A DNA stretch of 31,875 bases, taken from IMG/VR virus record IMGVR_UViG_3300025151_000171, positions 1 to 31,875 of that record. One strand, given 5' to 3'. Position numbers and translations under genes: made by a program. This stretch comes from a virus. Shown here piece by piece: positions 9,001 through 31,349 of this stretch. The first letter of the stretch is position 1. The number at the start of each line of letters is the position of its first letter. The notes beneath the pieces were generated by a model. That model worked only from the letters and a program-made list of their open reading frames with translations. It was not told the DNA's origin and did no database searches.

Positions 9001-10153
9001 TCTTTTTTTTCATTTCTGCTTCTGTTAATGCACCTTTATCTCTATAATGAAAGCGATAGTAAAAATCTTTCATAGCTTGTACATCACCTTGTGCTATTTG
9101 TCTAATAAATTCATCTGAACCCTTTGCGTCTAAATAATCAGCTATTACTAACGCCATTTGTTTATCTGGCATTAAAGCTGTCATATCTTTATGCTCTCTT
9201 AATTCTGATACAAATTCTGGCGATTCCCAAGTTCTATCATATGTTGATCTCCATTTATTAAATGCATTTATAACTCTTGGAACAGAAAATCCATTTACTT
9301 GCCATAATCCTGCGGCCGTTGAATCTGGATTTGCACTATGAATATTACGATTATCTGATTCTATACCTGCAATTATACTTAACATCATTGCAAAATTATT
9401 ATATTCATACTCTTGCAATTTAAATCTATCCATAACTATTTCTTTCATAGCTTGTGATTCTTTTCCATTTACAAGATTAATAGTATCTAATAATGGAAAT
9501 GCATCTTCTAAAATTCCTTCTTCTATATTTTCTTCTAATTTTTTTAATTGCCTTTTATCGTTAGCAATTTTTCGCTCTGATTGATTTTTCTTTATTAAAT
9601 CTTCATAATATTTTATATCTGGTTTATCTTCATTTAATGCTGTTTGCATTAATTCTACATCTCTGTTATCTGGGTATTTCATATCAAAACCCCTCATATC
9701 TTTTAACCCATATTCTTCTTCTGGAATTGGTGTTAAACTTATTCTACCTTCATCATCTGTAAAAAATTCTTTAAATACTTCGTTAAACTCTTTTTGCATT
9801 ATAGTTTGAGTATTAGGATCTAATTGCATCCAACTTTTCATTTGCTCTGAATTAAATTTAAATTCATTCTGAATTGCTAATTCATTCAAATTATCTGGAT
9901 CATTTTTTACTAATTCTTGTTTTAATAAATTATTTGGAAATGGCTCTGTTTGTTTTTTGTTATAAACTTGAGGATCTTCTGCTATTATTTCGTGTTCTAA
10001 TAATGATTTATTTGGAACTATACCATAATGCTTATTTATTTCGTGATCTGTAAAACCTGCAGATTTAAATATAGGGCGTTGCCTGTCTATCATTTTATTA
10101 ATAGCTTCTCTGCTAAAACCTGCTTCTACTAATTGTGATGCTTTTATTACCAT
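3080..10153 (-). CDS. Giant internal virion / DNA-ejection protein (lytic transglycosylase + HExxH)
   Basis: At 2357 residues this is by far the largest gene. Residues about 255-310 match a goose-type/Slt transglycosylase core: IAGIESDNRN with likely catalytic Glu265, then AAGLWQVNG. Residues about 511-550 are hydrophobic (DIPLMIGGALAFP onward) and could enter the membrane. A zinc-metallopeptidase motif HELGH occupies residues 1200-1204 (LAHELGHLID). Residues about 1950-2180 resemble the C-terminal domain of phage large polyvalent proteins (VLNTMFLYYNANKEGYR, GYTPDGRPVYIRIPMDF). The C-terminus is charged and coiled. It sits where T7 gene 16 lies, after two smaller internal proteins and before the tail fibre. 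It probably is ejected first, opens the cell wall and forms part of the DNA channel. The protease may process virion proteins; that is inference. Confidence 0.85.
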   Translation of the reverse strand: MVIKASQLVEAGFSREAINKMIDRQRPIFKSAGFTDHEINKHYGIVPNKSLLEHEIIAEDPQVYNKKQTEPFPNNLLKQELVKNDPDNLNELAIQNEFKFNSEQMKSWMQLDPNTQTIMQKEFNEVFKEFFTDDEGRISLTPIPEEEYGLKDMRGFDMKYPDNRDVELMQTALNEDKPDIKYYEDLIKKNQSERKIANDKRQLKKLEENIEEGILEDAFPLLDTINLVNGKESQAMKEIVMDRFKLQEYEYNNFAMMLSIIAGIESDNRNIHSANPDSTAAGLWQVNGFSVPRVINAFNKWRSTYDRTWESPEFVSELREHKDMTALMPDKQMALVIADYLDAKGSDEFIRQIAQGDVQAMKDFYYRFHYRDKGALTEAEMKKKNPALVERVDKYFSYWNNRAGLTKFVSPKLATFPVDNQPRTKLGKKLRKYGEKITKPLKYYMGGQGNIHAFSKGYEQSVAGLFQKYLENADGGMTDEELTNLFKELIMFNENQTFGDNVIKSVGQIIPDIPLMIGGALAFPTFVNTITAGVAAPLTPMTAMMGAFMLPEMLRAPLMKGYIDGKYNTFGQFMDDFVSVENGKVMLKAGTIGAATSVGGHLVKNIASRRLKFTRTKTEMSKLMAEAGIMTQLGFALEGEVPALKDFVHSAILMFGLHTTMKQVHNLINIYKKYGRRPEDVFNEAQANSGYKETLRKSEIPEFYDMAQEMAGRKAENVTGQKLLTVPDFQINETINSTVSGRDKVTIINKEIVGNDSVFVVQDARGNVFPVLESQVRKLDPQKDIDVEVTPEGKLDIKDKKIPDESPQSFKSRQTDGEFHSSFKEVEVTKNKDVVIKGEQPKTIQDNLAIIKKEQKLPDVQGLSQFRYDYTGDGKVFTDGVFAVTTKYYPNVEKGLKQYSKNTIPAIHKETQKTFYDKIYPKSERRKTNAKLEPYLQYTNEGVEVLVLKNKVTKDNIEVHKAKFDLLHTFKDVARGLPKKDLLKQSTKAKRQLKYFQDQAKEFRVMTGRTDITAEKQIAEIKKEIEKINTALEGKEQKADVVLQNNKVLFINPNNQEVIGTLMVRKQESEFNTQYNKYYDEFSQNFKGGTSNYSRSTRDGDSAGIPNEPYTPRQRATGNRDTWKELYDSGVGLKFYDLTVLVEHLLGAAPKMSKMRRGNLGVFRHLTKQDFNKPIKEQAELVINRELQKNPEEFIKTLAHELGHLIDFVPDRSTRRGNILGHIKGMRRYMKDWIDGKNDGAKPLSDVEKKEMMKEAEKIAEANKEVTEVEIKELKVTPETILDIVRDPNIRKKIDPELYKTFAQLSDIAKKEVMKDAMKGLTSPHLKEIVDKINNKDAPEISGDAAQLFKEMFEAEMLKRNIVRKEEIMNELKALSMKWHPFNRATEKPSYVKYRDSAPELMAEFQMAFLLRPQWTKLNAPKTFELWKYYMSERPEVYDMWRTIQSQLNAPRNEKDAQRANDFKAMLIRQDNKIRDHIKGLAKHQKQKKYDDLGTELIDVFWWSLTRLKIDGQKGKSPLSQTLLDELEGFRHRWAEGQLYQRTIENKIDRQLENFGYNKHDLAYMMTLKNLAYSKQREGKITWRYYPLPEDIKQSLKDSEGSLVEQYERYSAEQPNLARIADEFFELRRTEVVQRFMDYEVYSDVQKQEFLDNINYIKFQPAEKLIERFGKFGMHSWGSKQIRQTIGSFDEIVNVYDMTVMQDMMMLAEMKRQTLYKSFVDFLKTYKTQLSTFGADKDAPPLNIINIPKYIAKGKLDPVVPLGLSRVSYMHKGEVHTVDIPKQIVEAMQSNPLAQNILFKTTNSVTSLWRGIFTEHNPLFWIWNWGFRDMRRSAIILPNGKPMKSVVTRAQYVKEVFKSLKDAQKSIYGDGTEITRHMEKHGFLIGLQEAYKSDAGMKRNRLQMDEESFALKNFVWEQYESKGKFGKIHDKTLGKYLRHSGNIARLLDRSHKIAGYKILKNMIEKGEIDMTEGQLMRFVQANVGSPNYLRQSKSNPVLNTMFLYYNANKEGYRGDIGAAIEDKSGVGSRFFAYTVFPEILKWMVRMGLLGGAYAVLMDTIPDHDRQNFNIIPMGYTPDGRPVYIRIPMDFTSQMIASLTNMSLETAFGLDQAKNNGERIRMFWKGINGGLPTGQINPAVKMMVDTMRVVFGEDVTNTFGSPLLDKDVMKLDITDLEGKKLKALLKHNWNVYGPNWVYKFHNNDKAKILKEYEQITGFRPIDALFSRFVKVGPQVIVDKKREYDKINADHQNKMLVARQDAINKILSGRVSELNRDEKNSLGLLKQDLTDNNEFIRQLVQQFGANELVAEFLNGDRQQKLHTLKAMEYFRYNYPQYFEKVQETIKKAKEKQKEKELEN

Positions 10154-22380: not shown

Positions 22381-22534
22381 TAACACTTTCCCTAATTATA
22401 TCGGCTATAGATATTTGTTGATTTTCTATAACACTTCTATCATGAGCAATTTTAGATAACTGCTCTTTCATTTTTATAGGTATAACTAAATTATAAGTAG
22501 TATATGGAACATTTAATTTATTTGGTCTAGGCAT
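22364..22534 (-). CDS. Ribbon-helix-helix DNA-binding protein (CopG/Arc type)
   Basis: A 56-residue frame starting MPRPNKLNVPYTTYNLVIPI. It shows the RHH layout: a short beta strand (YNLVIPI), helix A (KMKEQLSKIAHDR) and helix B (ISIADIIRESVNERF), with the usual S-x-A-D-x-I pattern before helix B. It overlaps the nuclease gene stop by 8 bases and the large terminase start by 17 bases, a density typical of coupled phage genes. RHH proteins bind operators as dimers, so this could regulate the late operon, mark the packaging site, or assist terminase. The fold call is good; its target is unknown. Confidence 0.75.
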   Translation of the reverse strand: MPRPNKLNVPYTTYNLVIPIKMKEQLSKIAHDRSVIENQQISIADIIRESVNERFS

Positions 22535-22829
22535 CCTTATCTCTTATTTTATCAAGATCATCACTATGCACCATTACCCAAAACCCTGCCCTGCCCTTTT
22601 CACATAATGCAATAACTGGGGTCTTACCCTCTTTCTTTGCCATTGCATTTGTGTCATCCCAAAGGGTAATAGCTGTGTGCTTCTTGCGTAACTTACATTC
22701 TATAAATAATTTGTCGTGGATTACATCTGCTCTTGTAATCTTACCATTGCCACCACTTAATGGAGTCCTCTGACCACCAAAATAAGCAGCTACTTGTCGT
22801 TCTCTTTGTTTCCATGCTTTATCAGCCAT
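22527..22829 (-). CDS. PD-(D/E)XK nuclease (resolvase-like)
   Basis: Starting at ATG 22829 the product is 100 residues. It begins MADKAWKQRERQVAAYFGGQ and continues with RTPLSGG, then ITRADVIHDKLFIECKLRKK, giving the nuclease triad Asp35, Glu44 and Lys46 (D...E-x-K). Small phage proteins of this type are thought to act as Holliday-junction or branched-DNA nucleases that clear replication forks before packaging, which fits its place before terminase. A GTG start six codons upstream exists. No Shine-Dalgarno is seen, but a predicted promoter puts the transcript start at this ATG, so the mRNA may be leaderless. Confidence 0.78.
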   Translation of the reverse strand: MADKAWKQRERQVAAYFGGQRTPLSGGNGKITRADVIHDKLFIECKLRKKHTAITLWDDTNAMAKKEGKTPVIALCEKGRAGFWVMVHSDDLDKIRDKDA

Positions 22830-22835
22830 ATCTTG

Positions 22836-22864
22836 TATATAACACACAATTAACTTACGTTCAA
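22836..22864 (-). promoter_or_regulatory. Predicted sigma70-type promoter before nuclease gene
   Basis: Minus strand TTGAAC (22864-22859), 17-base spacer, TATATA (22841-22836). The expected start falls 6-7 bases further, at 22829, exactly the ATG of the nuclease gene. An operator-like dyad lies immediately upstream (22869-22884). Identified by eye in AT-rich DNA. Confidence 0.45.
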
Positions 22865-22868
22865 CCCA

Positions 22869-22884
22869 TTAACTTAGGTTAATA
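22869..22884 (-). promoter_or_regulatory. Operator-like site O4
   Basis: Read on the minus strand this is TATTAACCTAAGTTAA, sharing an uninterrupted 11-base core (TTAACCTAAGT) with the site at 30745-30760. It sits about 5 bases upstream of the -35 box of the nuclease promoter, a position where a bound protein could activate rather than block. Overlapping it is a perfect TTAGGT-TAAT-ACCTAA hairpin (22874-22889). Confidence 0.45.
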
Positions 22885-23079
22885 CCTAAAAATACCCACC
22901 GCTGTGGGATGGAATCCATATTATTATAGAAGGGAAACGTTTTTTGGGGGGTCGGTGGCCTGAAATAGGCAGTTTTCCTCATCTTTTATATAAATCACAA
23001 AGGAGATCTCCTTTTTTTTTGATCTGAGAGAGAGTGTGTGTGTAGAAAACGATATTCTCAAGATATATTATATATGTTC

Positions 23080-23126
23080 TGTTGTCTAAAAGTTTGACTA
23101 GGTAATATGTATTGTTGTCTAAAAGT
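23080..23126. repeat. Two 14-base direct repeats TGTTGTCTAAAAGT
   Basis: Exact copies lie at 23080-23093 and 23113-23126, 33 bases apart, or about three DNA turns. They are bracketed by an inverted pair TGTTCT (about 23075-23080) and AGAACA (about 23133-23138) with TATATA flanks. Iteron or terminase-recognition repeats have such spacing. Function not established. Confidence 0.6.
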
Positions 23127-23179
23127 GTTATCAGAACAATATATATATAAATGTACTAACTATTATATAAGTAATCATA

Positions 23180-23593
23180 TTAGTTAAGCTTCTCTGGTTC
23201 TGTTATTGTACCTAATAAGTATTGCAGTTCTTTTTGTAGTTCTTCTGTACTCTTCTCATTGGTTACATCTTTATGAAGTTGTACAGTTTGATGACCTGTT
23301 CTATCTAAAAGCGAATTCACCGCATTGATTTTGGTGGACGCATTGCATTTTGGATCTGATAAAACATCTGACAGAACTTGGATCGCTTTTGGAGTTAAAC
23401 TGTTTAACATACTCTGTTGTTTCTCAAATATCTCATTAGCATATCTTTTCTTTAAATATGCGCCCTGTTGTTCCGCAGTCTTTTCTGAATATCCAGAACG
23501 TATTGCAGATTGTTTAGCGTTTCCAGATTCCGCAAAATACTTAATAAAAGCATCTTTACAAGGTTGTTGCTTTTCTTGGGTTTTATTAGACAT
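23180..23593 (-). CDS. terS: Terminase small subunit
   Basis: A 137-residue protein with a typical small-terminase N-terminal HTH segment: CKDAFIKYFAESGNAKQSAI followed by RSGYSEKTAEQQGAYLKKR, the A-x-x-A-G-Y-S-x-x-T pattern that binds packaging sites. Its helical middle (LTPKAIQVLSDVLSD, STKINAVNSLLDRTG) and acidic C-terminal tail (EELQKELQYLLGTITEPEK) likely mediate oligomerisation and contact with the large subunit. AAGGA sits immediately before ATG. It is the first gene of the leftward arm but is separated from the large subunit by the non-coding region and two small genes. Confidence 0.85.
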   Translation of the reverse strand: MSNKTQEKQQPCKDAFIKYFAESGNAKQSAIRSGYSEKTAEQQGAYLKKRYANEIFEKQQSMLNSLTPKAIQVLSDVLSDPKCNASTKINAVNSLLDRTGHQTVQLHKDVTNEKSTEELQKELQYLLGTITEPEKLN

Positions 23594-23612
23594 TCCTTAT
23601 ATTAACACCTTA

Positions 23613-23640
23613 ATAATAAAAAAGATATTGACTTAACCAA
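23613..23640 (-). promoter_or_regulatory. Predicted leftward promoter for the late arm
   Basis: Minus strand TTGGTT (23640-23635), 16-base spacer, TATTAT (23618-23613), just upstream of the small terminase gene. Its -35 box lies within operator-like site O1 and overlaps the spacer of the rightward promoter. The -35 match is poor; called mainly because of the divergent layout. Confidence 0.35.
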
Positions 23641-23655
23641 AGTAAATTATATTAT
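23628..23655 (+). promoter_or_regulatory. Predicted rightward early promoter
   Basis: TTGACT (23628-23633), 16-base spacer, TATTAT (23650-23655). The expected start, 23662, coincides with an ATG in frame with the first early gene. Operator-like O1 covers the end of the -35 box and most of the spacer. Confidence 0.5.
23631..23646 (+). promoter_or_regulatory. Operator-like site O1 between divergent arms
   Basis: ACTTAACCAAAGTAAA, 15 of 16 bases identical to the site at 30745-30760. It overlaps the -35 elements of both the leftward and rightward promoters, so one bound repressor dimer could silence both arms. Confidence 0.5.
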
Positions 23656-23721
23656 AAAGTTATGAATAGGTCTTTTAATATTAACTGTTGTATTTTTGCA
23701 ACAACAACACTAGGAGAAAAT

Positions 23722-23982
23722 ATGTTCAAACATATAGAAGAAAGAACTACTGATTATTATTTAACTGAAGATAGATATAATCAGATAAAAAAAAACTATC
23801 CTAAATGTAATCAAACAATCCCATATTCTGATAGACATTTATTTAAAAGAGATTTTTATCAAAAATATATTGAATTGGATTGTATGGAAAAATCAGATAT
23901 TGGATTTGAGTTAACTGCTCAATCTGAATGTACATATAAACAATTTAAAGGGGTTAAAAAAAGCAAATCTGACGAGTCTTGA
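23722..23982 (+). CDS. Early protein of unknown function (86 aa)
   Basis: The start at 23722 has an ideal AGGAG 5 bases upstream and the same leader (TAGGAGAAAATATG) as two later genes. A longer frame opens at ATG 23662, the predicted transcription start, and would add 20 residues. The product is charged and Tyr/Lys-rich (HIEERTTDYYLTEDRYNQI, FKRDFYQKYIELDCMEK) with four scattered cysteine or histidine-type residues, and ends in KKSKSDES. No family is recognised. It is the first gene of the rightward arm and is followed by a hairpin, so it is likely expressed first; host takeover is a common role for such genes. Confidence 0.72.
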   Translation: MFKHIEERTTDYYLTEDRYNQIKKNYPKCNQTIPYSDRHLFKRDFYQKYIELDCMEKSDIGFELTAQSECTYKQFKGVKKSKSDES

Positions 23983-23991
23983 TTAGACGAA

Positions 23992-24013
23992 ACTACCCAT
24001 AAATTTGGGTAGT
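23992..24013 (+). other. Intercistronic hairpin 1
   Basis: ACTACCCA pairs with TGGGTAGT over 8 bases around TAAATT. It is followed by CATTTGCAATATTAATT, not a U-run, so it is unlikely to terminate; more likely an RNA-processing or stabilising element. It is matched by hairpin 2. Confidence 0.6.
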
Positions 24014-24046
24014 CATTTGCAATATTAATTTTAACTAGGAGAAAAT

Positions 24047-24250
24047 ATGCAAAAAGAAATAATAAAAAACCCTGTTGGAAATGTCATGCAGATGATTAGA
24101 TTATATTCATCTGTTGATGCTAAAGGTAAACAATTAATATTGGATTCAGTTCAAGAGGTTATGGATTCAATGTATAACCATTATTTAGCATCTGTTAAAT
24201 ATAAAGAAAAAATGGATTCTGTTATTAACTCTCAACAGGCAGGTAAATAA
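24047..24250 (+). CDS. Small early protein, unknown function (67 aa)
   Basis: ATG follows AGGAG by 6 bases, within the shared leader sequence. The 67-residue product is predicted to be mostly helical (VMQMIRLYSSVDAKGKQLI, DSVQEVMDSMYNHYLASVK) and has no cysteine or enzyme motif. The stop overlaps the start of the zinc-ribbon gene as TAATG, so both are made together and may act together. No similarity is recognised. Confidence 0.7.
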   Translation: MQKEIIKNPVGNVMQMIRLYSSVDAKGKQLILDSVQEVMDSMYNHYLASVKYKEKMDSVINSQQAGK

Positions 24251-24540
24251 TGGGTACAGTTGTTAAATGTCCAGATTGCCATAGCACTAATATTTATTTT
24301 TATTATCATGAATATGTAAATTGCGGTGCAGATGATAAAGTTACTTTTGAACAAAATAAAAAAGGTGAATGGCTCGCAAAATTTCCAAAATTAACATATG
24401 ACGATATAACACAATACGAATACATGGGTTGCAGAAATTGTACATCTGAATTTATTATTGATAATTGTCATTATGAAGATGAAAACGGAGATTATCAAAA
24501 CGAGTGTTTTCCAGAAAAAAGCAAATCTGAAGAAGTTTAA
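24250..24540 (+). CDS. Zinc-ribbon early protein (96 aa)
   Basis: The N-terminus has CPDC (VKCPDCHSTNIYFYYHEY) and residues about 58-61 have CRNC (YMGCRNCTSEF), a two-knuckle C-x-x-C pair spaced like a zinc ribbon with an acidic insert of about 45 residues between. The C-terminus is acidic and ends EKSKSEEV, whose DNA matches the end of the first early gene. Zinc ribbons often bind nucleic acid or RNA polymerase, so a transcription-modulating role is possible but not shown. It is coupled to the 67-residue gene by TAATG and followed by hairpin 2. Confidence 0.7.
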   Translation: MGTVVKCPDCHSTNIYFYYHEYVNCGADDKVTFEQNKKGEWLAKFPKLTYDDITQYEYMGCRNCTSEFIIDNCHYEDENGDYQNECFPEKSKSEEV

Positions 24541-24547
24541 TACAGAA

Positions 24548-24569
24548 ACAGGGAATTAATTTTCCCTGT
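24548..24569 (+). other. Intercistronic hairpin 2
   Basis: ACAGGGAA pairs with TTCCCTGT over 8 bases around TTAATT. The bases after it (CATTTGCAATATTAATT) are identical to those after hairpin 1, while the stem sequence differs, which suggests conserved structure. Confidence 0.6.
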
Positions 24570-24603
24570 CATTTGCAATATTAATTAAACACTAGGAGAA
24601 AAC

Positions 24604-24930
24604 ATGACAAAAAAAGAAAGCAAAAAATGGCAACGAATTAAATGTATTGAAGAGGTAAGAAAATTATTTAAAAAAGGTGATACCCTTTATACCCAATTAC
24701 ATAGAAGAACAAGAAGCGGTGCTATTTATTTTTCTGTAAGATACATTAAAGATAATAGACCATTACAATTAAATTTTCATACATCAGAAATTTTAGACAT
24801 GAAATTTGATAAAGAATGGCATTGTTTAAAACAACCCTTTGGCAATATGGACATGGGGTTTAATACTATTTATACTTTGTGTAATGTCGTTTTTAATGAT
24901 GGATATTATTTAAAACACGAATGGTTGTAA
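24604..24930 (+). CDS. Early protein of unknown function (108 aa)
   Basis: ATG follows the ACTAGGAGAAAAC leader. The product has a basic N-terminus (TKKESKKWQRIKCIEEVRKL, FKKGDTLYTQLHRRTRSG) and then a beta-like part (AIYFSVRYIKDNRPLQLNF, TLCNVVFNDGYYLKHEWL), which could be a small nucleic-acid-binding barrel. No named family is recognised. It stands alone between hairpins 2 and 3, so it may be an independent translation unit in the early transcript. Confidence 0.68.
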   Translation: MTKKESKKWQRIKCIEEVRKLFKKGDTLYTQLHRRTRSGAIYFSVRYIKDNRPLQLNFHTSEILDMKFDKEWHCLKQPFGNMDMGFNTIYTLCNVVFNDGYYLKHEWL

Positions 24931-24958
24931 ATCACTATTGATGAAGGTTAAACCAGAA

Positions 24959-24980
24959 ACAGGGCGAAATTTTGCCCTGT
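24959..24980 (+). other. Intercistronic hairpin 3
   Basis: ACAGGGC pairs with GCCCTGT (7 bases) around an AT-rich loop that can pair partly. No U-run follows. A wider inverted pair, AAGGTTAA (24944-24951) and TTAACCTT (25041-25048), brackets this gap, which also holds AGCGATTTTAA and AGCGATTTAAA direct repeats. Confidence 0.55.
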
Positions 24981-25067
24981 CTAGTGATAATTAAGCGATT
25001 TTAAGAGCCATACAGAGCGATTTAAATAGTTTGATGAATATTAACCTTAACTAAAAACGGAGAAATA

Positions 25068-25295
25068 ATGTACGAAATGTTTTATAGAACACATAAAATA
25101 AATAAAAAAAAATTGTCTAAAGAATTGACCACAGAACAAATTGAAACTATTGAAAAGGCGGTTAATATTATAAATGACATAAATTGCGAAATAATAGAAA
25201 TGCAGGATTTAAAATTGTCTGATATGCACAAATTAAATGAAATTTTTTGGCAATTATATCATAAATTTAATTTTCAACAGGATAAGGAAAAATAA
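25068..25295 (+). CDS. Small early protein, unknown function (75 aa)
   Basis: A GGAG Shine-Dalgarno lies 5 bases before the ATG. The 75-residue product has a basic start (MYEMFYRTHKINKKKLSKEL) and two helices (TTEQIETIEKAVNIINDIN, EIIEMQDLKLSDMHKLNEI). No cysteine pair and no motif that I recognise. It is followed after 2 bases by another helical gene. It is probably a small protein-binding factor of the early phase, but nothing in sequence fixes its target. Confidence 0.65.
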   Translation: MYEMFYRTHKINKKKLSKELTTEQIETIEKAVNIINDINCEIIEMQDLKLSDMHKLNEIFWQLYHKFNFQQDKEK

Positions 25296-25297
25296 AA

Positions 25298-25543
25298 ATG
25301 AAAAAAATACAGGACATTTTAGAAAAATTAATAGACGAGTTAAACACTCACGAAAATATCGATCAGTATGTTTATGATTTAATTCAAGAAATAGAAATAG
25401 AATTAGTACAACCTATTGAAATATATAGAAATGAAGAACGATTTATTTATGACGTTCAACCAGATTATAATTGGACAACTATTGATAAAAAAGAAACGAA
25501 TGAAACGAAATCTAAAATTAATCTTGAAAAATTAACAGAATAG
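25298..25543 (+). CDS. Acidic helical early protein (81 aa)
   Basis: The 81-residue product is strongly acidic and rich in Ile/Glu/Asp/Tyr (KKIQDILEKLIDELNTHENI, YVYDLIQEIEIELVQPIEI), with a Lys/Thr-rich tail. Such acidic small phage proteins can mimic DNA, but no specific family is recognised. It is the last gene of the first early operon: an intrinsic terminator begins about 30 bases after its stop. AAGGA upstream gives a moderate ribosome site overlapping the previous gene. Confidence 0.65.
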   Translation: MKKIQDILEKLIDELNTHENIDQYVYDLIQEIEIELVQPIEIYRNEERFIYDVQPDYNWTTIDKKETNETKSKINLEKLTE

Positions 25544-25571
25544 GTTAAAATTAATTATATTTCTTCCTAGT

Positions 25572-25609
25572 AATCCCCTAGATTTTAACGAGTTTAGGGG
25601 ATTTTTTTT
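25572..25609 (+). terminator. Strong intrinsic terminator closing the first early operon
   Basis: AATCCCCTA (25572-25580) pairs perfectly with TAGGGGATT (25595-25603) around a 14-base loop and is followed by TTTTTT. Classic Rho-independent structure on the plus strand, immediately before a new promoter. Confidence 0.9.
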
Positions 25610-25627
25610 GACTAAATAAAAAAAAGT

Positions 25628-25656
25628 TTGACAATACATTTTTAAATACTTAACAT
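25628..25656 (+). promoter_or_regulatory. Predicted promoter of the second early operon
   Basis: Perfect -35 TTGACA (25628-25633), 17-base spacer, TAACAT (25651-25656). The expected start, about 25663, is two bases before the ATG of the first gene. A second TTGACT lies at 25608-25613. Operator-like O2 covers the -10 box. Confidence 0.5.
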
Positions 25657-25663
25657 AGGTAAA
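25648..25663 (+). promoter_or_regulatory. Operator-like site O2
   Basis: ACTTAACATAGGTAAA, 14 of 16 bases matching the site at 30745-30760. It spans the -10 box and start of the predicted promoter, where binding would block transcription of the replication operon. Confidence 0.45.
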
Positions 25664-25664
25664 T

Positions 25665-25820
25665 ATGGTAATAGATGATAAAATAAGAATTAAACAATTA
25701 GAAAATGAAAATGCACGTTACAAAAGAGCATATCATATTTTAATGGATTATTTTGATTATTTAGATGATGATTTAAAAGAAGAATTAGATAGAAGATTAG
25801 ACGCAGAGGTTGATTTATGA
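25665..25820 (+). CDS. Acidic coiled-coil protein (51 aa)
   Basis: A 51-residue frame with a short coiled start (IDDKIRIKQLENENARYK) and an acidic, aromatic helix (DYFDYLDDDLKEELDRRL). It ends with TGA overlapping the ATG of the next gene, the usual coupling here. The predicted promoter leaves only about two bases of leader, and AGG lies 6 bases before ATG, so it may be read from a nearly leaderless mRNA. No family known. Small size and helical character suggest a protein-interaction role. Confidence 0.6.
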   Translation: MVIDDKIRIKQLENENARYKRAYHILMDYFDYLDDDLKEELDRRLDAEVDL

Positions 25821-26068
25821 TGACAAAAGAAGATTTACATATGCACATGGCTCATATGCAGTTAGTAAAAATGAATAAAGTTTTAAATGGATATTGCGCT
25901 TTAATTGATTATTTAAAAACGCAAATCAATAATTTAGAAGATTTAGGTATAGATGAAAATAAGGATAGTTTACATGGATTGGCTTTGATTCATCAAGATT
26001 TATGCAACGCTAAAGATTATTTTGAAAAAGAATACGAGATGCAGAAAACTATTTGTGAGAATATGTAA
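25817..26068 (+). CDS. Small helical protein, Met/His-rich start (83 aa)
   Basis: Starts at ATG 25817 or the adjacent 25820. The 83-residue product begins MMTKEDLHMHMAHMQLVKM and continues as helices (YCALIDYLKTQINNLEDL, LIHQDLCNAKDYFEKEYE). The H-M-H-M-x-H cluster could bind metal, but that is speculative. It overlaps both neighbours (ATGA-like and TAATG junctions), placing it firmly in the second early operon. Function not recognised. Confidence 0.65.
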   Translation: MMTKEDLHMHMAHMQLVKMNKVLNGYCALIDYLKTQINNLEDLGIDENKDSLHGLALIHQDLCNAKDYFEKEYEMQKTICENM

Positions 26069-26229
26069 TGAAAATATCAAATAAAAAAGCTAGTTTAAAA
26101 TGTCATAGATGCCACTATTATTACAAATATACGGAAATGTACGCTATTGGACATAAGTATGGGCAAGTGTGCGGTCGTTGTCATGACATAACAATGGAAG
26201 AGATGATTAATGAACAAAAAAAAACGTAA
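26068..26229 (+). CDS. Zinc-knuckle microprotein (53 aa)
   Basis: A 53-residue protein with two C-x-x-C knuckles: CHRC near residues 12-15 and CGRC near 35-38, both followed by His, which gives a compact treble-clef or zinc-ribbon shape. The start shares a base with the previous stop (TAATG) and the end overlaps the next gene by 20 bases. It is below common length cut-offs but the four-cysteine pattern supports a folded protein. A role in nucleic-acid or protein binding is likely; the partner is unknown. Confidence 0.68.
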   Translation: MKISNKKASLKCHRCHYYYKYTEMYAIGHKYGQVCGRCHDITMEEMINEQKKT

Positions 26230-26356
26230 AGTTATTAAGTTTAAACCTAATTTTAATTATGGCGGTTATGATCGCTCTATTTGGTTAGATAAAGTAAAGG
26301 CAGATGAACATATAGACGCTTTACCTTGTGATACTGAGAGAAAAGATGATGAATAA
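26210..26356 (+). CDS. Small basic protein (48 aa)
   Basis: A 48-residue frame beginning MNKKKRKVIKFKPNFNYGGY, basic at the start and acidic at the end (DTERKDDE), with a central RSIWLDKVKADEHIDAL. No family is known. The 20-base overlap with the zinc-knuckle gene and 8-base overlap with the following frame fit operon tiling. It lies directly upstream of the candidate origin. Confidence 0.5.
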   Translation: MNKKKRKVIKFKPNFNYGGYDRSIWLDKVKADEHIDALPCDTERKDDE

Positions 26357-26486
26357 GTTTATAGCGGTGCTATGGCAGTGCTACAATCATGCTATCATTT
26401 TGCTAATGGCAAAAAATAGCTATACATATACATATACCTATACCAATACTTATACCAATACATACAAGATAGTAACAACAGAGTAA
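26349..26486 (+). CDS. Doubtful ORF across the candidate origin (45 aa)
   Basis: A frame from ATG 26349 (or 26346) crosses the iteron-like boxes and the TATACA tract without a stop. It gives a hydrophobic start (FIAVLWQCYNHAIILLMAK) and a low-complexity Tyr-Thr tail (SYTYTYTYTNTYTNTY). The tail is a translation of the hexamer repeat, so the open frame may be a by-product of DNA structure. It may still be translated, since its start overlaps the previous gene. Its interpretation depends on whether this segment is an origin. Confidence 0.3.
   Translation: MNKFIAVLWQCYNHAIILLMAKNSYTYTYTYTNTYTNTYKIVTTE
26367..26470 (+). other. Candidate replication origin: 11-base iterons plus AT-rich tract
   Basis: TGCTA occurs at 26368, 26379, 26390 and 26401, each exactly 11 bases from the next, so all four boxes face the same side of the helix. 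They are followed by AAAAAATAGC and a TATACA/TATACC tract (26421-26465), an easily melted element. The next genes are replication proteins (YdaU-like, RepB-type primase, helicase). Boxes plus melting tract next to initiator genes is the layout of iteron origins; function here is inferred. Confidence 0.5.
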
Positions 26487-26492
26487 ACCAAA

Positions 26493-26864
26493 ATGCGGAA
26501 AACTACTAGAGAAGAACAATCACCAATATTTAGATTTTATGCAAAAGATTGGATAAGCAGTCCAGATAGACTGAGATTATCTTTAGAAGAGCAGGGTGCA
26601 TATATCTTGTTGTATTGTTTTTGTTGGAGGGGTTTTGAAATTGAGTTAGATTTTGAAGTTTTAAGTCGTATGTGTAATTGTAGAACAGAAAAGATTGAAA
26701 AGATATTCCCACGAATAGAGCATTTATTTAGCAAAATAGAACGTAATAACAAAACTTATCTTGTATGCATTCAAGCGGAAGAAGAAAGAAAAGAGCAAGC
26801 TATAAACAGAATTAAAAAACAAAAAGCAGGGAAACTTGGCGCTAAAATTAGGTGGAGTAAATAA
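26493..26864 (+). CDS. YdaU/DUF1376-family replication-associated protein
   Basis: The 123-residue product carries the family pattern from residue 12 on: IFRFYAKDWISSPDRLRLSL followed by EEQGAYILLYCFCWRGFEI (F-Y-x-x-D-W and E-x-x-G-A-Y), then a winged-helix-like part (VLSRMCNCRTEKIEKIF). It ends in the typical basic KKQKAGKLGAKIRWSK. DUF1376 proteins occur in prophage replication modules in the place of lambda O-type initiators. It is the first gene downstream of the iteron-like boxes, so it is the best candidate to bind them. It lacks a strong Shine-Dalgarno. Confidence 0.78.
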   Translation: MRKTTREEQSPIFRFYAKDWISSPDRLRLSLEEQGAYILLYCFCWRGFEIELDFEVLSRMCNCRTEKIEKIFPRIEHLFSKIERNNKTYLVCIQAEEERKEQAINRIKKQKAGKLGAKIRWSK

Positions 26865-26929
26865 TGGAGATAATTATAGTGTACATGATTATAGGAATAT
26901 CTTGGTATTATTGGGATAATTTAAAATGA
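26864..26929 (+). CDS. 21-residue membrane microprotein
   Basis: ATG 26864 shares a base with the previous TAA (TAATG) and the TGA (26927-26929) overlaps the ATG of the primase gene. The peptide is a single hydrophobic helix (MEIIIVYMIIGISWYYW) with an acidic and a Lys residue at the end. Gap-free tiling between two certain genes suggests it is truly translated. It could be a membrane anchor or a small regulator, or serve only to couple translation. Confidence 0.55.
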   Translation: MEIIIVYMIIGISWYYWDNLK

Positions 26930-27720
26930 TGTACAGAGATTTTTTAACTGCGTTTGGAGATCAACATAGTTTCCAAACTTTTGACGATAAAGGCAAAAAC
27001 AAAACACTTATAAAGCAATTACATGGTCATATTGATGAACATATTGACCAATTAGCTATGTTAAACCAAAAAGGTGCAGGAGTATATTTTACTGTAAACA
27101 AAACAGATTTGCAGGGTAGAACAACAAAAAACATAGAGCAAGTAAGAGCGGTATTTTGTGATTTTGACGGAACACCACTTCCAGAAAATTTTGATGTATT
27201 ACCGCATTTAATTATTAACACTTCTCCAGATAAATACCATGTGTATTGGTTGGTTAAAGATTTACCTTTAGAAAGTTTTACTTTATATCAACAAGCATTA
27301 GCTAGTAAGTTTGGAAGTGATCCTGCGGTAAAAGATTTACCTAGAATTATGAGAGTTGCAGGATTTTATCATAATAAGAAGAGTGCATATCCTGTAAAAA
27401 TAGTAGAAGAACGCATTATGGGTGCATACACAAAAGAGGAAATAAGAGATGGTTTAAATTTAGTTAGACCAAAAAAAAGAGTGTTTAAATTTGATCCAAA
27501 TTATAAGCATACATATAATGGCGGAGTTACAGGAGCAACGGAAGGCGATAGACACGCACGTTTAGTTAGAATGGTAATATCAATTATTAAACGTGGTGAA
27601 GATTATCAATATGCAAGAGGAGAAGTTTTAAAATTTAACAGTATGTGTAATCCGCCAAATTCTCAACAAGAGGTTTTATGGCATTTAGACGATATGTGGA
27701 GTAGATATGCAACTGCGTGA
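26926..27720 (+). CDS. RepB-type DNA primase (archaeo-eukaryotic primase fold)
   Basis: The 264-residue protein matches the RepB/AEP primase domain of mobile elements. The key features are GAGVYFTVNKTDLQG at residues 50-64, VRAVFCDFDG at 73-82 with metal-binding Asp79 and Asp81, LIINTSPDKYHVYWLV at 95-110 with the conserved His105, and LPRIMRVAGFYHNKK at 138-152. A C-terminal helical part (GDRHARLVRMVISIIKRGED onward) resembles PriCT domains. It synthesises primers for replication restart or initiation. Start is 26926 or 26929. The helicase gene overlaps its end by 14 bases. The phage appears to have no polymerase here, so host polymerase probably extends the primers. Confidence 0.82.
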   Translation: MMYRDFLTAFGDQHSFQTFDDKGKNKTLIKQLHGHIDEHIDQLAMLNQKGAGVYFTVNKTDLQGRTTKNIEQVRAVFCDFDGTPLPENFDVLPHLIINTSPDKYHVYWLVKDLPLESFTLYQQALASKFGSDPAVKDLPRIMRVAGFYHNKKSAYPVKIVEERIMGAYTKEEIRDGLNLVRPKKRVFKFDPNYKHTYNGGVTGATEGDRHARLVRMVISIIKRGEDYQYARGEVLKFNSMCNPPNSQQEVLWHLDDMWSRYATA

Positions 27721-29191
27721 GTATCAAGATTTTGCAATAGAACAGATAAAACAAAAATTTCAACAAGGAAATAAAAAAGTTTTATTAGTTGCCCCAACAG
27801 GTAGTGGCAAAACTGTTATTGCAAGTCGTATGATAGAAAAAGCAACGCAAAAAAATAAAAGATGCCTGTTTGTTGCGCATAGAAGAGAATTAGTTACACA
27901 ATGTTCGAACAAATTACATGAGTTTGGAATAGATGCAGGAGTAATAATGGCAGGCATTACAGGTAGTTGGGTTCATGACACGCAGGTTGCAAGCATACAA
28001 ACTTACAATGCTAGAAAAGATCGAGATGATTTTCACAAACCAGATGCGGATCTAATTATTTTAGATGAAGCACATAGATCAACAAGTGATACATTTAAAA
28101 AGTTACTAGAAGAATATCCAGATGCTTATGTCGTGGGATTAACTGCAACACCAATTAGAAATGACGGAAAAGCGTTAGGCAATATTTATGATGAATTAGT
28201 AGAAAGTAGTAATATAAGAGATTTAACTGCGCAAGGTTATCTTGTTAAAAATAGGGTTTTTGCTCCTAGTATTCCAGATTTGCAAGGATTAAAAATTTCT
28301 ATGGGCGATTATGATAAAAGACAATTAGATAAAAGAATGAACAAAACAAAATTAGTTGGCGATACTGTAAGTCATTGGATCAAGTTTGCAGAGAATAGGC
28401 CAACAGTTGTTTTTGCTAGTAGTATTGCTCATAGCAAATATATAGCCAACATATTTAATCAAAATGGTGTACCCGCAGGACATATTGATAGTGAAATGAA
28501 TGATGAAGATAGAGAGCAAGTGTTAAAAGATTTACAGGAAGATAAAATTAAAGTGTTGTCAAATTGTATGATACTGACGGAGGGGTGGGATTGTCCTAAA
28601 GTTTCTTGTGTGGTGATTTGTCGCCCTACAAAATCTTATGGAATGTATTTACAAATGGTAGGTAGATCATTAAGACCGCACCCAGATAAAAACGACACAT
28701 TAATAATAGATCATAGCGGTTGCATATATGAACACGGATTCCCAGAAGATGTGCCTAAATGGGAATTAAAGCGTAGAGAAGAAAAAGAAAGAAAAAAGAA
28801 AGAACCTGTACCTATTGAAAAACAACCTTATACTTGTGTTAAATGTGATTTTGTTTACAAACCTACAAAAGAAGAACCAGAATGTCCAAACTGTTCTCAC
28901 ATACCAACTAAAAAAGAACAGATTATGTTAATAAAACAAGGTAGATTAATAGAATTACCAAAAATGAAAGAAACAAAAGCAGAAGATAAGAAAAGGTTTT
29001 ATGCCCAACTATTGTTTATTGCAAAACAAAAAGGGTATAAAGAGGGGTGGGCAAGTCATACTTTTAGAGAAAAATACCATCATTTTCCCCATTCTAAAAT
29101 GGTCTTGCCCATACCACCTACTAACGAAGTGCATAATTTTATTAAGCATTTACAAATTAAAAAAGCTAAATCAAAAGGAGTAAGATTATGA
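27707..29191 (+). CDS. SF2 DEAH-box DNA helicase with C-terminal zinc finger
   Basis: The 494-residue protein has all core SF2 motifs: Q/RQ-like LREYQDFAIEQI at the start, Walker A APTGSGKT (29-36), DEAH (120-123), TATP (146-149), and motif VI QMVGRSLRP (316-324). A four-cysteine zinc site (Cys377, 380, 393, 396) lies in the C-terminal part, followed by a basic tail. Such helicases unwind DNA for origin opening or fork restart. GGAG is 5 bases upstream and the start lies within the primase gene, so the two proteins are made in step. Confidence 0.92.
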   Translation: MQLREYQDFAIEQIKQKFQQGNKKVLLVAPTGSGKTVIASRMIEKATQKNKRCLFVAHRRELVTQCSNKLHEFGIDAGVIMAGITGSWVHDTQVASIQTYNARKDRDDFHKPDADLIILDEAHRSTSDTFKKLLEEYPDAYVVGLTATPIRNDGKALGNIYDELVESSNIRDLTAQGYLVKNRVFAPSIPDLQGLKISMGDYDKRQLDKRMNKTKLVGDTVSHWIKFAENRPTVVFASSIAHSKYIANIFNQNGVPAGHIDSEMNDEDREQVLKDLQEDKIKVLSNCMILTEGWDCPKVSCVVICRPTKSYGMYLQMVGRSLRPHPDKNDTLIIDHSGCIYEHGFPEDVPKWELKRREEKERKKKEPVPIEKQPYTCVKCDFVYKPTKEEPECPNCSHIPTKKEQIMLIKQGRLIELPKMKETKAEDKKRFYAQLLFIAKQKGYKEGWASHTFREKYHHFPHSKMVLPIPPTNEVHNFIKHLQIKKAKSKGVRL

Positions 29192-29418
29192 ATGTACGAT
29201 ATTTAAAAATTAAAATATCAGATGTTAAAAGATATATTAAATATTACGAAAAATTTTATAATATGGAATTAGATAAAGATGGATATAAGTATGTAATTGA
29301 AAATCTTATGTATGATTTGGATTTAGATATATATGCAGATAACAAATATTATAATGATATATTATCTTCATTACATAACTTTGTAAAAGGTGGAAAATTT
29401 AATCGTATAGAGGAGTAA
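29188..29418 (+). CDS. Small protein, unknown function (76 aa)
   Basis: ATG overlaps the helicase stop (ATGA) behind AGGAG at 29176-29180. The 76-residue product is Lys/Tyr/Asp-rich and helical (RYLKIKISDVKRYIKYYEKF, YKYVIENLMYDLDLDIYAD). No motif is recognised. Its leader is a 16-base exact copy of that before the next gene. Co-transcription with helicase suggests a replication accessory role. Confidence 0.65.
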   Translation: MNVRYLKIKISDVKRYIKYYEKFYNMELDKDGYKYVIENLMYDLDLDIYADNKYYNDILSSLHNFVKGGKFNRIEE

Positions 29419-29422
29419 GATT

Positions 29423-29644
29423 ATGATTGAACCTACTACACAAGATTATATATGGGCAAGTAGTCGTTTTTTATTAAGACCATTACCATCAGATTATGAT
29501 AAATGGAAAGAAAAAAAATTTTATAAATTCCTTGAGAAAAATGCGTCGTCTTCTTATGAATGTGCTGACCCCATAGATATATGGAATCAAATTGAATCTC
29601 TAGCGTGGAGTATGAGATATTATATTGGAGGTAAAAATGAGTGA
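29423..29644 (+). CDS. Small protein, unknown function (73 aa)
   Basis: The start lies in a second copy of AGGAGTAAGATTATGA. The 73-residue product is rich in Trp and Tyr (QDYIWASSRFLLRPLPSDYD, KWKEKKFYKFLEKN, WNQIESLAWSMRYYIGG), a composition common in protein-protein contact surfaces. No family is recognised. Its end overlaps the coiled-coil gene by 8 bases. Confidence 0.65.
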   Translation: MIEPTTQDYIWASSRFLLRPLPSDYDKWKEKKFYKFLEKNASSSYECADPIDIWNQIESLAWSMRYYIGGKNE

Positions 29645-29978
29645 AGTCGAATTAGAAAAACGTATGCATGAGATTAGAAAAATTGGTGAGTCCTACGCAG
29701 AAGCTAAAGCTAACCTAAATTATCTTGAACATTATCGTAAAATAAAATTGGCTCAAATGATGAAACAAAAATTGTCAGAAGCTAATAATATGTCAGTTGC
29801 AAAAGCTGATTTAGAATCAAGGGCGGAAGAAGAGTATGTTAAATTATGTCAAGATTTAAAAGATGCGGTACAACAAGAATCCAAACTTGCATGGGAAAAA
29901 AAAATGGTAGAACTTAAATTTGAGTTTTGGAAAACAAATCAAATCTCTGCTATGAGTGAACGTAAAAAGTATGGGTAA
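29637..29978 (+). CDS. Coiled-coil protein of the recombination/replication module
   Basis: I choose ATG 29637, which follows GGAGG by 5 bases; a TTG four codons earlier lacks a ribosome site. The 113-residue protein is a continuous charged helix (EVELEKRMHEIRKIGESYAE, KADLESRAEEEYVKLCQDLK, WEKKMVELKFEFWKTNQIS). Proteins of this composition are frequent next to ssDNA-binding or annealing genes in phages, but I cannot name a family with confidence. It overlaps the HNH nuclease start by 8 bases. Confidence 0.7.
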   Translation: MSEVELEKRMHEIRKIGESYAEAKANLNYLEHYRKIKLAQMMKQKLSEANNMSVAKADLESRAEEEYVKLCQDLKDAVQQESKLAWEKKMVELKFEFWKTNQISAMSERKKYG

Positions 29979-30273
29979 AAAGAAACCAACACTTAAAGAG
30001 CGAAAACATATGGAGAAAGTTGCAAGCATTGGTTGTATAGCTTGTCGTAAATTAGGAATTTATGATTCACCTGCGGAGATTCACCATATAAAAAATTTTA
30101 CAGGAGCAGGAAAACGATCAAGTCATATGCTAGTTTTACCTTTATGTCCTAATCATCATAGAAATTCTAACGAAAGTTATCATCATTCTCCTAAAAAATT
30201 TGAAAATCGTTTTGGAAGCCAAATAAAGCTCTTAGAAGAAGTTTTAGATCTTTTGGGAAGTATCAACCATTAA
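29971..30273 (+). CDS. HNH nuclease, Ref (RecA-dependent nuclease) like
   Basis: From ATG 29971 the product is 100 residues; a GTG five codons earlier is less likely. It has a Zn pair CIAC (Cys22, Cys25), the HNH core IHHIKN with His38-His39, and PLCPNHHR with Cys59, His62 and His63, followed by YHHSPKKFENRFG. This arrangement matches the small Ref/RecA-dependent nuclease family and similar phage HNH proteins. It likely nicks or cuts DNA during recombination. It is the last rightward gene before the reverse-oriented repressor island and overlaps the end of that island's second gene by 11 bases. Confidence 0.8.
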   Translation: MGKKKPTLKERKHMEKVASIGCIACRKLGIYDSPAEIHHIKNFTGAGKRSSHMLVLPLCPNHHRNSNESYHHSPKKFENRFGSQIKLLEEVLDLLGSINH

Positions 30274-30475
30274 ACCATTGCAACCATTCTCCAGAGGTCT
30301 TATTTTGATGCCATTTTCTCCAATGATACTCAGTTATACATACATACCAATTAAAATCGTGTTTTTGTTTTAATTTGTATATCGCAACATCACAACTAGA
30401 ATATAAATGATTAAAAACTACCGCTTGCTCTTTTGGAGAAGTAAGTAAGGCGACAACAACAAATAATGTTTTCAT
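30263..30475 (-). CDS. Small membrane or exported protein, co-transcribed with repressor
   Basis: A 70-residue leftward protein with a short hydrophobic N-terminus (MKTLFVVVALLTSPKEQ), which may be a signal anchor, followed by a soluble part with two cysteines (28 and 46) and many aromatic residues (HDFNWYVCITEYHWRKWHQ). It starts one base after the repressor stop, so the pair forms an operon. Small exported proteins next to phage repressors can give superinfection immunity; that is inference. No family is recognised. It ends convergently over the HNH gene. Confidence 0.6.
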   Translation of the reverse strand: MKTLFVVVALLTSPKEQAVVFNHLYSSCDVAIYKLKQKHDFNWYVCITEYHWRKWHQNKTSGEWLQWFNG

Positions 30476-30476
30476 T

Positions 30477-30677
30477 TTAAAAAATTAAATCTGGTCTAAT
30501 ATACTCTAATTTGTAATCACCAAAACTTGCAATTTGATATGCTCTTAATTGTGGTATAACTTCCCACTTAGAAACTGCAGGGTGAGATATATTTAATTTT
30601 TCAGATAAATTTTTACCACCATACTTAGCTACAATTTCTTTTTTTCTTTGTATTGCTAAATCGTATTTATTACTCAT
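30477..30677 (-). CDS. Cro/YdaS-like HTH repressor
   Basis: A 66-residue protein with a helix-turn-helix in residues about 23-40 (NLSEKLNISHPAVSKWEV), followed by RAYQIASFGDYKLEYIRPDL, the R-A-x-Q-I and L/E-x-I-R-P-D pattern typical of Cro/YdaS-type regulators. Such proteins bind dyad operators as dimers. It reads against its early-operon neighbours, divergent from the NGO0469-like gene, with operator-like O3 in between. A predicted promoter starts transcription at its own ATG with no leader, like the leaderless mRNA of lambda cI from PRM. No Shine-Dalgarno is present. Confidence 0.85.
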   Translation of the reverse strand: MSNKYDLAIQRKKEIVAKYGGKNLSEKLNISHPAVSKWEVIPQLRAYQIASFGDYKLEYIRPDLIF

Positions 30678-30683
30678 AATGTA

Positions 30684-30712
30684 AATCTATAAAAAAAATT
30701 AACATATGTCAA
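30684..30712 (-). promoter_or_regulatory. Predicted repressor promoter, leaderless
   Basis: Minus strand TTGACA (30712-30707), 17-base spacer, TAGATT (30689-30684). The expected start is 30677, the first base of the repressor ATG. The -35 is perfect, the -10 weak, as expected for a promoter that may need help from an activator. Confidence 0.45.
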
Positions 30713-30719
30713 TATTTAG

Positions 30720-30747
30720 TTGACTATATAATTAATAAATATATACT
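30720..30747 (+). promoter_or_regulatory. Predicted promoter of the ssDNA-protein operon
   Basis: TTGACT (30720-30725), 16-base spacer, TATACT (30742-30747), giving a start near 30754 and a 26-base leader with AAGGAG before ATG 30780. O3 overlaps the -10 box. Confidence 0.5.
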
Positions 30748-30760
30748 TAACCTAAGTAAA
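30745..30760 (+). promoter_or_regulatory. Operator-like site O3 (reference copy)
   Basis: ACTTAACCTAAGTAAA. The core ACTTA-ACC-TAAGT is a perfect 5-base dyad. It lies between the divergent repressor and NGO0469-like genes and overlaps the -10 box of the rightward promoter. O1, O2 and O4 are near copies. Confidence 0.55.
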
Positions 30761-30779: not shown

Positions 30780-31349
30780 ATGAGTTTAGTAATATCAGAA
30801 GAACAAAGTGAATCTAAGTACCCAACAATACCTTTAGGAGTTAGTAAAGCTAGATGCGTGAGTGTGATAGATTTAGGTACACAGGAAAATAATTGGCAAG
30901 GAGAAATATCTTGGAAAAGGCAAGTGTTGTTTGAATGGGAAGTTCCAGAGCATACTAATAATAATGGCGAGCCATTAACTATAAGTAAATTTTACAACGT
31001 ATCTTTTTTTGAGAAATCAAATTTATCAAAAGATTTAACCTCATGGAAGGGTAAGCCATTTAGTCCGCAGGAAAAGAAACAATTTAATATGGGCGATATG
31101 TTAGGTCAAACTTGTCAAATACAAATAATGGAAAAAGATAATGGTAAACAACAGATTGTAAGCATTATGCCATTAAAAGAACCAATGACGGAACAATATC
31201 ATAAGTCTAAATTATTTAGTATAGAAGATTACCAAAACGATAGAAAAGAAGTATTTAATCAGATTAGAGAGGGTATTAGAAATATTATATTAAGATCTAA
31301 AGAATTAACTACTGAAGATGCAGATACTAGTGGCAACGTACCATTTTAA
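30780..31349 (+). CDS. NGO0469/DUF669-like replication protein (probable ssDNA binding)
   Basis: The 189-residue protein has the pattern of the phage replication protein family typified by NGO0469: IPLGVSKARCVSVIDLGTQE, WKRQVLFEWEVPEH, LTISKFYNVSFFEKSNLSKD, LTSWKGKPFSPQE and MLGQTCQIQIM, forming an OB-like beta domain, then a helical, acidic tail ending in DTSGNVPF, as in ssDNA-binding proteins that use an acidic C-terminal tip ending in Phe. It probably coats single strands and recruits the exonuclease encoded just downstream. A strong AAGGAG lies before the ATG. It begins a third early operon. Confidence 0.8.
   Translation: MSLVISEEQSESKYPTIPLGVSKARCVSVIDLGTQENNWQGEISWKRQVLFEWEVPEHTNNNGEPLTISKFYNVSFFEKSNLSKDLTSWKGKPFSPQEKKQFNMGDMLGQTCQIQIMEKDNGKQQIVSIMPLKEPMTEQYHKSKLFSIEDYQNDRKEVFNQIREGIRNIILRSKELTTEDADTSGNVPF

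What the first reader, a model, noticed from the sequence alone, without database searches (positions are those of the whole stretch)
22869..30760. A four-site operator regulon spanning both arms of a small podovirus
ACTTAACCTAAGTAAA (dyad ACTTA-ACC-TAAGT) occurs at 30745-30760, with copies at 23631-23646 (15/16), 25648-25663 (14/16) and, reversed, 22869-22884 (shared 11-base core). All four are intergenic and sit on or beside predicted promoters; a Cro/YdaS-like gene lies next to the reference copy. Lytic T7-like phages normally time expression with their own RNA polymerase, whereas this one appears to use a lambda-style repressor acting on dispersed operators. Seen: the copies and positions. 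Inferred: that the 66-residue protein binds them.
Basis: partly seen in the sequence, partly recalled or inferred. Interest (0 to 1): 0.82.

Follow-up and report, generated by a model that had tools for sequence, protein, structure and literature searches.

The report
Cro-only operator network in pelagiphages
A lineage of apparently lytic ocean phages, related to a phage of the marine bacterium Pelagibacter, carries a tiny lambda/P22-type Cro repressor gene and a conserved 14-base binding palindrome on its early, late and cro promoters, so it probably times its genes with one small repressor instead of its own RNA polymerase.

Summary
The four copies are real, but the dyad was read in the wrong register. 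The operator is TTAAC-N4-GTTAA with a central TA (rTTAACnTAnGTTAAy), not ACTTA-ACC-TAAGT. In an unbiased search of all 5-mer dyads with gaps 0-10 over 91 cro-bearing records, this dyad ranks first (35 of 56 distinct contexts intergenic; background 7.8%). It lies above the 99% genic level upstream of ssb/cro in 54 of 62 distinct relatives and upstream of the late operon in 17 of 17. Nine related HTVC010P-type phages lacking cro have essentially none. The 66-aa protein is a P22_Cro member. Several exceptions have an altered Cro: one clade re-spaced both examined sites from N4 to N5, another has TTTAC half-sites and a changed recognition helix. No tyrosine integrase, T7-type RNA polymerase or bacterial-genome copy was found. 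Best reading: a CI-less Cro autorepressor acting on dispersed operators at host-type sigma-70 promoters. Binding and repression are inferred, not shown; how late genes escape is open.

The parts
30477..30677 (-). cro gene, 66 aa, P22_Cro family; HTH with recognition helix around SHPAVSKW (residues 31-38)
   Evidence: Pfam PF14549 E 5.7e-12, 45.7 bits over cut-off 30.2; only PDB sequence relative is P22 Cro 1RZS; AlphaFold model mean pLDDT 88.9, five helices, best fold match 1RZS
30699..30712 (.).
   Evidence: second-best matrix hit in window; TTGACnnnnGTTAA on the cro -35 in 31 distinct upstream sequences, mostly 34/35 or about 57 nt before the cro ATG; promoter TTGACA-17-TAGATT
30747..30760 (.).
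   Evidence: promoter TTGACT-16-TATACT 30720-30747
30780..31349 (+). ssb-like gene (phrog_862/6599, unknown function), first gene of the rightward operon; in relatives followed by nuclease-like, holin-like and lysozyme-like genes
   Evidence: the names ssb/nuclease/holin/lysozyme are inference from annotation, position and sequence
23633..23646 (.). O3, operator TTAACCAAAGTAAA between -35 (TTGACT 23628-23633) and -10 (TATTAT 23650-23655) of a rightward early promoter, divergent from terS
   Evidence: conserved upstream of terS in relatives
23180..23593 (-). terminase small subunit
   Evidence: Pfam Terminase_2 E 5.9e-8
25650..25663 (.). O4, operator TTAACATAGGTAAA covering the -10 (TAACAT 25651-25656) of a second rightward early/middle promoter (-35 TTGACA 25628-25633)
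   Evidence: conserved in the sister genomes G001 and G003
22869..22882 (.). O1, perfect operator TTAACTTAGGTTAA immediately upstream of the late promoter -35
   Evidence: best matrix hit; a strong site upstream of the late operon in 17/17 distinct relatives with this first gene
22850..22863 (.).
   Evidence: position read from the sequence; a second, weaker site downstream of O1 recurs in relatives. The simple promoter scan did not list this promoter
22527..22829 (-). Holliday-junction-resolvase-like gene, first gene of the leftward late operon (then terL, portal, capsid, tail)
   Evidence: phrog_2002 E 7.9e-10 for the 22527-22847 ORF; left-arm annotation; start at ATG 22829 is inference

Best explanation
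The window is most of the genome of an apparently obligately lytic phage related to Pelagibacter phage EXVC032P Baldr. It is transcribed by host sigma-70 RNA polymerase. It encodes one Cro-type repressor and at least six dispersed copies of its operator, TTAAC-NTAN-GTTAA. A Cro dimer would bind these dyads, which sit on or beside the -35, spacer, -10 or start region of the cro promoter, the divergent ssb/recombination/lysis promoter, two early promoters and, as a pair, the late-operon promoter. By blocking RNA polymerase it would limit its own synthesis and damp the early operons. Through the strongest, paired sites it would also hold back the late operon, until replication multiplies the operators and dilutes Cro. 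Shown: the sites, their conservation, their positions relative to promoter-like hexamers, and that the protein is a Cro. Inferred from covariation and autoregulatory placement: that Cro binds them. Inferred from geometry: repression. Speculative: release by replication-driven titration.
For: Protein is P22_Cro. A matrix trained on other clades finds the six sites as the top hits, all intergenic (six of top seven). The dyad ranks first of all 5-mer x gap dyads over 91 cro-bearing records: 35/56 distinct contexts intergenic against 7.8% background, binomial p 5e-25; second is ATTAA-N6-TTAAT, the same motif widened. Relatives: sites above the 99% genic level upstream of ssb/cro in 54/62 distinct sequences, upstream of terS in 19/32, upstream of the late operon in 17/17. 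The operator overlies the cro -35 at near-constant geometry. Nine related HTVC010P-type phages have no cro and only two perfect dyads between them. Covariation: the two N5 genomes G014 and G018 have both their cro-promoter and terS-promoter sites as TTWAC-N5-GTWAA and carry Cro WIVIPL/WAVIPL where relatives have mostly W[EKQ]VIP[PQ]; they form a nested clade. L067/L068, with ITPG in place of ISHP in the recognition helix, have TTTACnnnnGTAAA at cro and TTTACATAGGTATA at terS. No tyrosine integrase and no T7-type RNA polymerase (the search finds it in T7).
Against: No binding or expression data. Covariation rests on two small clades, and other relatives without a clear site (L063, L064, L069, L087) are unexplained. 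Overlap with TTGACA partly explains the TTGAC half of the cro-promoter sites. Repressing the late promoter needs a release mechanism, and none is seen. O1 lies upstream of the -35, where an activator could also sit. Some perfect dyads lie inside predicted ORFs in G019 and G007; ORF calls were mechanical. Other regulators may lie in the missing remainder of this genome, and many early genes match no Pfam family.
Confidence: 0.74

Rival explanations
1. Cro binds the dyads but is a dual regulator: it represses early promoters whose sites cover -35/-10, and activates the late promoter from the upstream perfect operator O1, making the early-to-late switch.
For: The strongest, perfect site lies upstream of the late -35, which is a poor hexamer (TTGAAC; TTGTAC in related genomes) in the window and close relatives. 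A 63-residue Cro-derived protein has been engineered as a dual activator-repressor (PMC7286687, abstract). Late expression needs some trigger and no other candidate was found in the proteins scanned.
Against: The distance of O1 from the inferred start is not fixed: about -47 in the window, about -60 in other relatives (read). A second site covers the -35 or spacer, which suits repression. Natural P22-type Cro proteins are not known as activators (own knowledge).
Confidence: 0.15
2. The dyads are sites of a host regulator (for example CtrA, TTAA-N7-TTAA, which regulates other alphaproteobacterial phages), or are extended promoter elements, and Cro binds elsewhere.
For: The motif shares TTAA halves with CtrA sites; CtrA sites occur in alphaproteobacterial phages (PMC9437464).
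Against: Spacing is N6 between TTAA, not N7, in the bulk (101 distinct intergenic contexts at N6, 27 at N7), with inverted C/G flanks. No ctrA ortholog was found in Pelagibacter (PMC2877005). HTVC010P-type phages isolated on Pelagibacter lack the sites together with cro. The motif covaries with Cro. Position relative to the -10 differs from promoter to promoter.
Confidence: 0.07
3. Chance AT-rich palindromes in intergenic DNA.
Against: First place among all 5-mer dyads, clade-excluded recovery, and conservation at the same promoters across some sixty distinct relatives.
Confidence: 0.02

Closest known systems
P22 / lambda Cro with OR/OL operators
   Same: Small Cro protein of the P22_Cro family, operator dyad on its own promoter and on early promoters; half-sites separated by four A/T-preferring bases, as for P22 operators (geometry from own knowledge; A/T-centre requirement of P22 c2 and 434 repressors in PMC3711457)
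   Different: No CI partner seen and no tyrosine integrase; operators dispersed over both arms as single or paired sites, including the late-operon promoter, instead of tripartite OR/OL; half-site TTAAC
Cluster A mycobacteriophage repressor with dispersed operators/stoperators (L5, Bxb1)
   Same: One phage regulator with many dispersed sites; operator and regulator specificity diverge together (PMC6550527)
   Different: Those are 20-30 oriented sites, mostly not at promoters, used by an immunity repressor of temperate phages; here at least six, all at promoters, in phages without a tyrosine integrase
Telomere phages N15 / PY54 / phiKO2 Cro
   Same: P22-like all-alpha Cro acting as lytic repressor (PMC4997575)
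   Different: Those Cro proteins favour a single operator in an immunity region next to a prophage repressor
HTVC010P-type pelagiphages
   Same: Portal protein 41-44% identical; no T7-type RNA polymerase
   Different: No P22_Cro gene and no operator set

Membership tests
P22_Cro (PF14549) transcriptional regulators | Sequence match above the curated cut-off | tested here: met
   45.7 bits vs 30.2; also above cut-off in the 13 other records and the five relatives
P22_Cro (PF14549) transcriptional regulators | Cro fold with HTH, like P22 Cro 1RZS | tested here: met
   Predicted model mean pLDDT 88.9; 1RZS first in the fold search (prob 0.98, though E only 0.13), and the only sequence match
P22_Cro (PF14549) transcriptional regulators | Binds operator dyads including one on its own promoter | tested here: inconclusive
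   Conserved dyad on the cro -35 and covariation; binding itself not testable here
Lambda-type CI/Cro lysis-lysogeny switch | CI-type prophage repressor next to cro | tested here: inconclusive
   The divergent neighbour is the ssb-like gene, not cI; one P22_Cro match per record; no dedicated CI/S24 search was made
Lambda-type CI/Cro lysis-lysogeny switch | Integrase / temperate life style | tested here: not met
   No tyrosine integrase in 14 records; no relative of the protein in a collection of 84,980 bacterial and archaeal genomes. Serine integrases not searched
T7-like phages (Autographivirales) | Single-subunit phage RNA polymerase | tested here: not met
   PF00940 absent from 14 records and five more relatives; T7 control found at 1e-109; the window's end is missing but the complete relative Baldr also lacks it
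YdaS | Pfam PF15943 match above cut-off | tested here: not met
   16.3 bits vs 30

The most novel reading that the evidence does not exclude
A natural 66-residue Cro is the sole temporal regulator of a lytic phage lineage and acts both ways: it represses early promoters and activates the late one from the perfect upstream operator, so early-to-late switching needs no phage polymerase, sigma factor or antiterminator.
Probability: 0.15. Interest if true: 0.8.

Novelty: new variant of a known kind. Interest (0 to 1): 0.57.

Why it matters
How podoviruses of Pelagibacter without their own RNA polymerase time their genes is poorly known: in the first SAR11 infection transcriptomes, all early genes of the lytic HTVC023P-type phage HTVC027P (a different group) have unknown function (PMC12753301). 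Here the circuit can be read from sequence: one regulator, a defined operator, named target promoters, and a cultured relative (Baldr) in which to test it. The clade that changed spacer length at both its examined sites gives a natural experiment on how Cro proteins change operator geometry.

Tried and rejected
Host CtrA: wrong spacing, and no ctrA ortholog in Pelagibacter. YdaS: below cut-off. Temperate phage: no tyrosine integrase, no bacterial-genome copies. T7-type polymerase: absent; the first search had no positive control (nothing rang), so T7 was added and found. Passing the handle G018 to the search for related loci failed; a late-operon Pfam batch failed on wrong coordinates and was not repeated. 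Papers naming EXVC032P were not found; the HTVC010P-type genome paper PMC8477408 is not held.

Full report
What the window is. It is a 31,875-base linear virus record. The portal and large terminase are 76-79% identical to Pelagibacter phage EXVC032P Baldr (39.5 kb, circular); next come HTVC010P-type pelagiphages for the portal (41-44%) and Vibrio podoviruses for the terminase (about 55%). The left arm (minus strand) is the late operon: HJ-resolvase-like gene, terL, portal, capsid, tail tubes, a 2357-residue ORF and tail fibres. The right arm carries early genes: a primase, a helicase, a Ref-like/HNH-type nuclease, cro and an ssb-like gene. It is not T7-like in regulation: PF00940 is absent here and in all relatives tested, while T7 itself is found.

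Observation. The four copies exist but are only marginally significant as a 16-mer, and the dyad as described is not enriched. Comparing them shows another symmetry, TTAAC-N4-GTTAA: 22869 is a perfect copy, and 23633, 25650, 30747, 30699 and 22850 have 9 of 10. At that stage the window alone was weak (7 sites of at least 9/10 against 3.45 +/- 1.9 expected), so the case rests on relatives.

Relatives. 27 loci were found with the protein, and 190 candidate relatives (80 kept) with an alignment of it, none in a collection of 84,980 bacterial and archaeal genomes. Over 91 records (1.28 Mb), testing every 5-mer inverted repeat with gaps 0-10 and counting distinct contexts, TTAAC-N4-GTTAA is the most frequent and most significant intergenic dyad (35 of 56; second is the same motif extended to ATTAA-N6-TTAAT). 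The base counts give rTTAACnTAnGTTAAy with an A/T centre, as expected for P22/434-type operators, whose centres must be narrow (PMC3711457). A matrix trained without the window's clade ranks the six window sites first to sixth, all intergenic; with another pseudocount, six of the first seven. Upstream of ssb/cro 54 of 62 distinct relatives exceed the 99% level of genic windows, upstream of terS 19 of 32, upstream of the late operon's first gene 17 of 17. The matrix was trained on strict dyads of the whole set, so the terS and late-operon figures are partly circular; the ssb/cro figure is less so, because most of those sites are not strict dyads. Nine HTVC010P-type genomes without P22_Cro have two perfect dyads between them.

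Why Cro. The gene's own promoter carries the dyad on its -35 at near-constant geometry (34/35 nt to the ATG in one large group, about 57 nt with a Shine-Dalgarno in another). Several relatives that lack the standard motif have an altered Cro. G014 and G018 (WIVIPL/WAVIPL after the recognition helix) have N5 dyads at both the cro and terS promoters and are nested among N4 phages. L067/L068 (ITPG instead of ISHP) have TTTAC half-sites. In the predicted structure the recognition helix is residues 32-36 and the next helix starts at 43, so the half-site change goes with residues at the start of the recognition helix and the spacing change with residues 39 and 43 just after it. This fits but is only two clades. 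L063, L064, L069 and L087 remain without a clear site.

How it most likely works. O5 covers the cro -35; O6 the end of the -10 and the start region of the divergent ssb-like promoter; O3 the spacer and O4 the -10 of two early promoters; O2 the late -35, with O1 just upstream. The late promoter was read by eye and is not in the simple scan's list. These positions suit repression by occlusion. In relatives the ssb-like operon continues into nuclease-like, holin-like and lysozyme-like genes, so replication, lysis and late genes would all answer to one autoregulated repressor. Release by operator multiplication during replication is my proposal. Activation from O1 is the main rival, weakened because O1's distance to the inferred start is not constant among relatives.

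Known or new. The protein is an ordinary P22_Cro member. The arrangement is a variant: Cro without a CI partner in sight and without a tyrosine integrase, with dispersed promoter operators including the late promoter, in phages that seem obligately lytic. Not shown: binding, repression, the host of this particular phage, and absence of CI (no dedicated CI search; one P22_Cro match per record).

Noticed in passing
22829, 23662, 25665, 30677: Start codons lie 6-8 nt after the -10 hexamers at the late, two early and cro promoters, suggesting leaderless mRNAs; 19 distinct cro upstream sequences keep 34/35 nt from the -35 to the ATG without a Shine-Dalgarno.
   Followed up: partly
22895-22990: Block upstream of the late promoter with a G run (ttttttggggggtcggtgg) and, on the minus strand, GGATTC..ATC..GGGTATTTTT, resembling a conserved block upstream of terS in other relatives; possibly a packaging site. 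A terminator-like hairpin lies at 22913-22895.
   Followed up: no
25572-25603: Strong 14-bp terminator-like hairpin just before the O4 promoter, marking an early transcription-unit boundary.
   Followed up: no
26926-29191: RepB-type primase followed by an SF2 helicase; no DNA polymerase seen in the proteins scanned here or in Baldr's annotation.
   Followed up: no
3080-10153: Very large 2357-residue late ORF; Baldr has a 7-kb hypothetical protein at the equivalent place.
   Followed up: no
L034 12987-13006; record G007 26614-26633: In one clade the ssb-side site is an extended palindrome TTAACTTTAAATTAAGTTAA (N10 between half-sites), possibly two overlapping operators.
   Followed up: no
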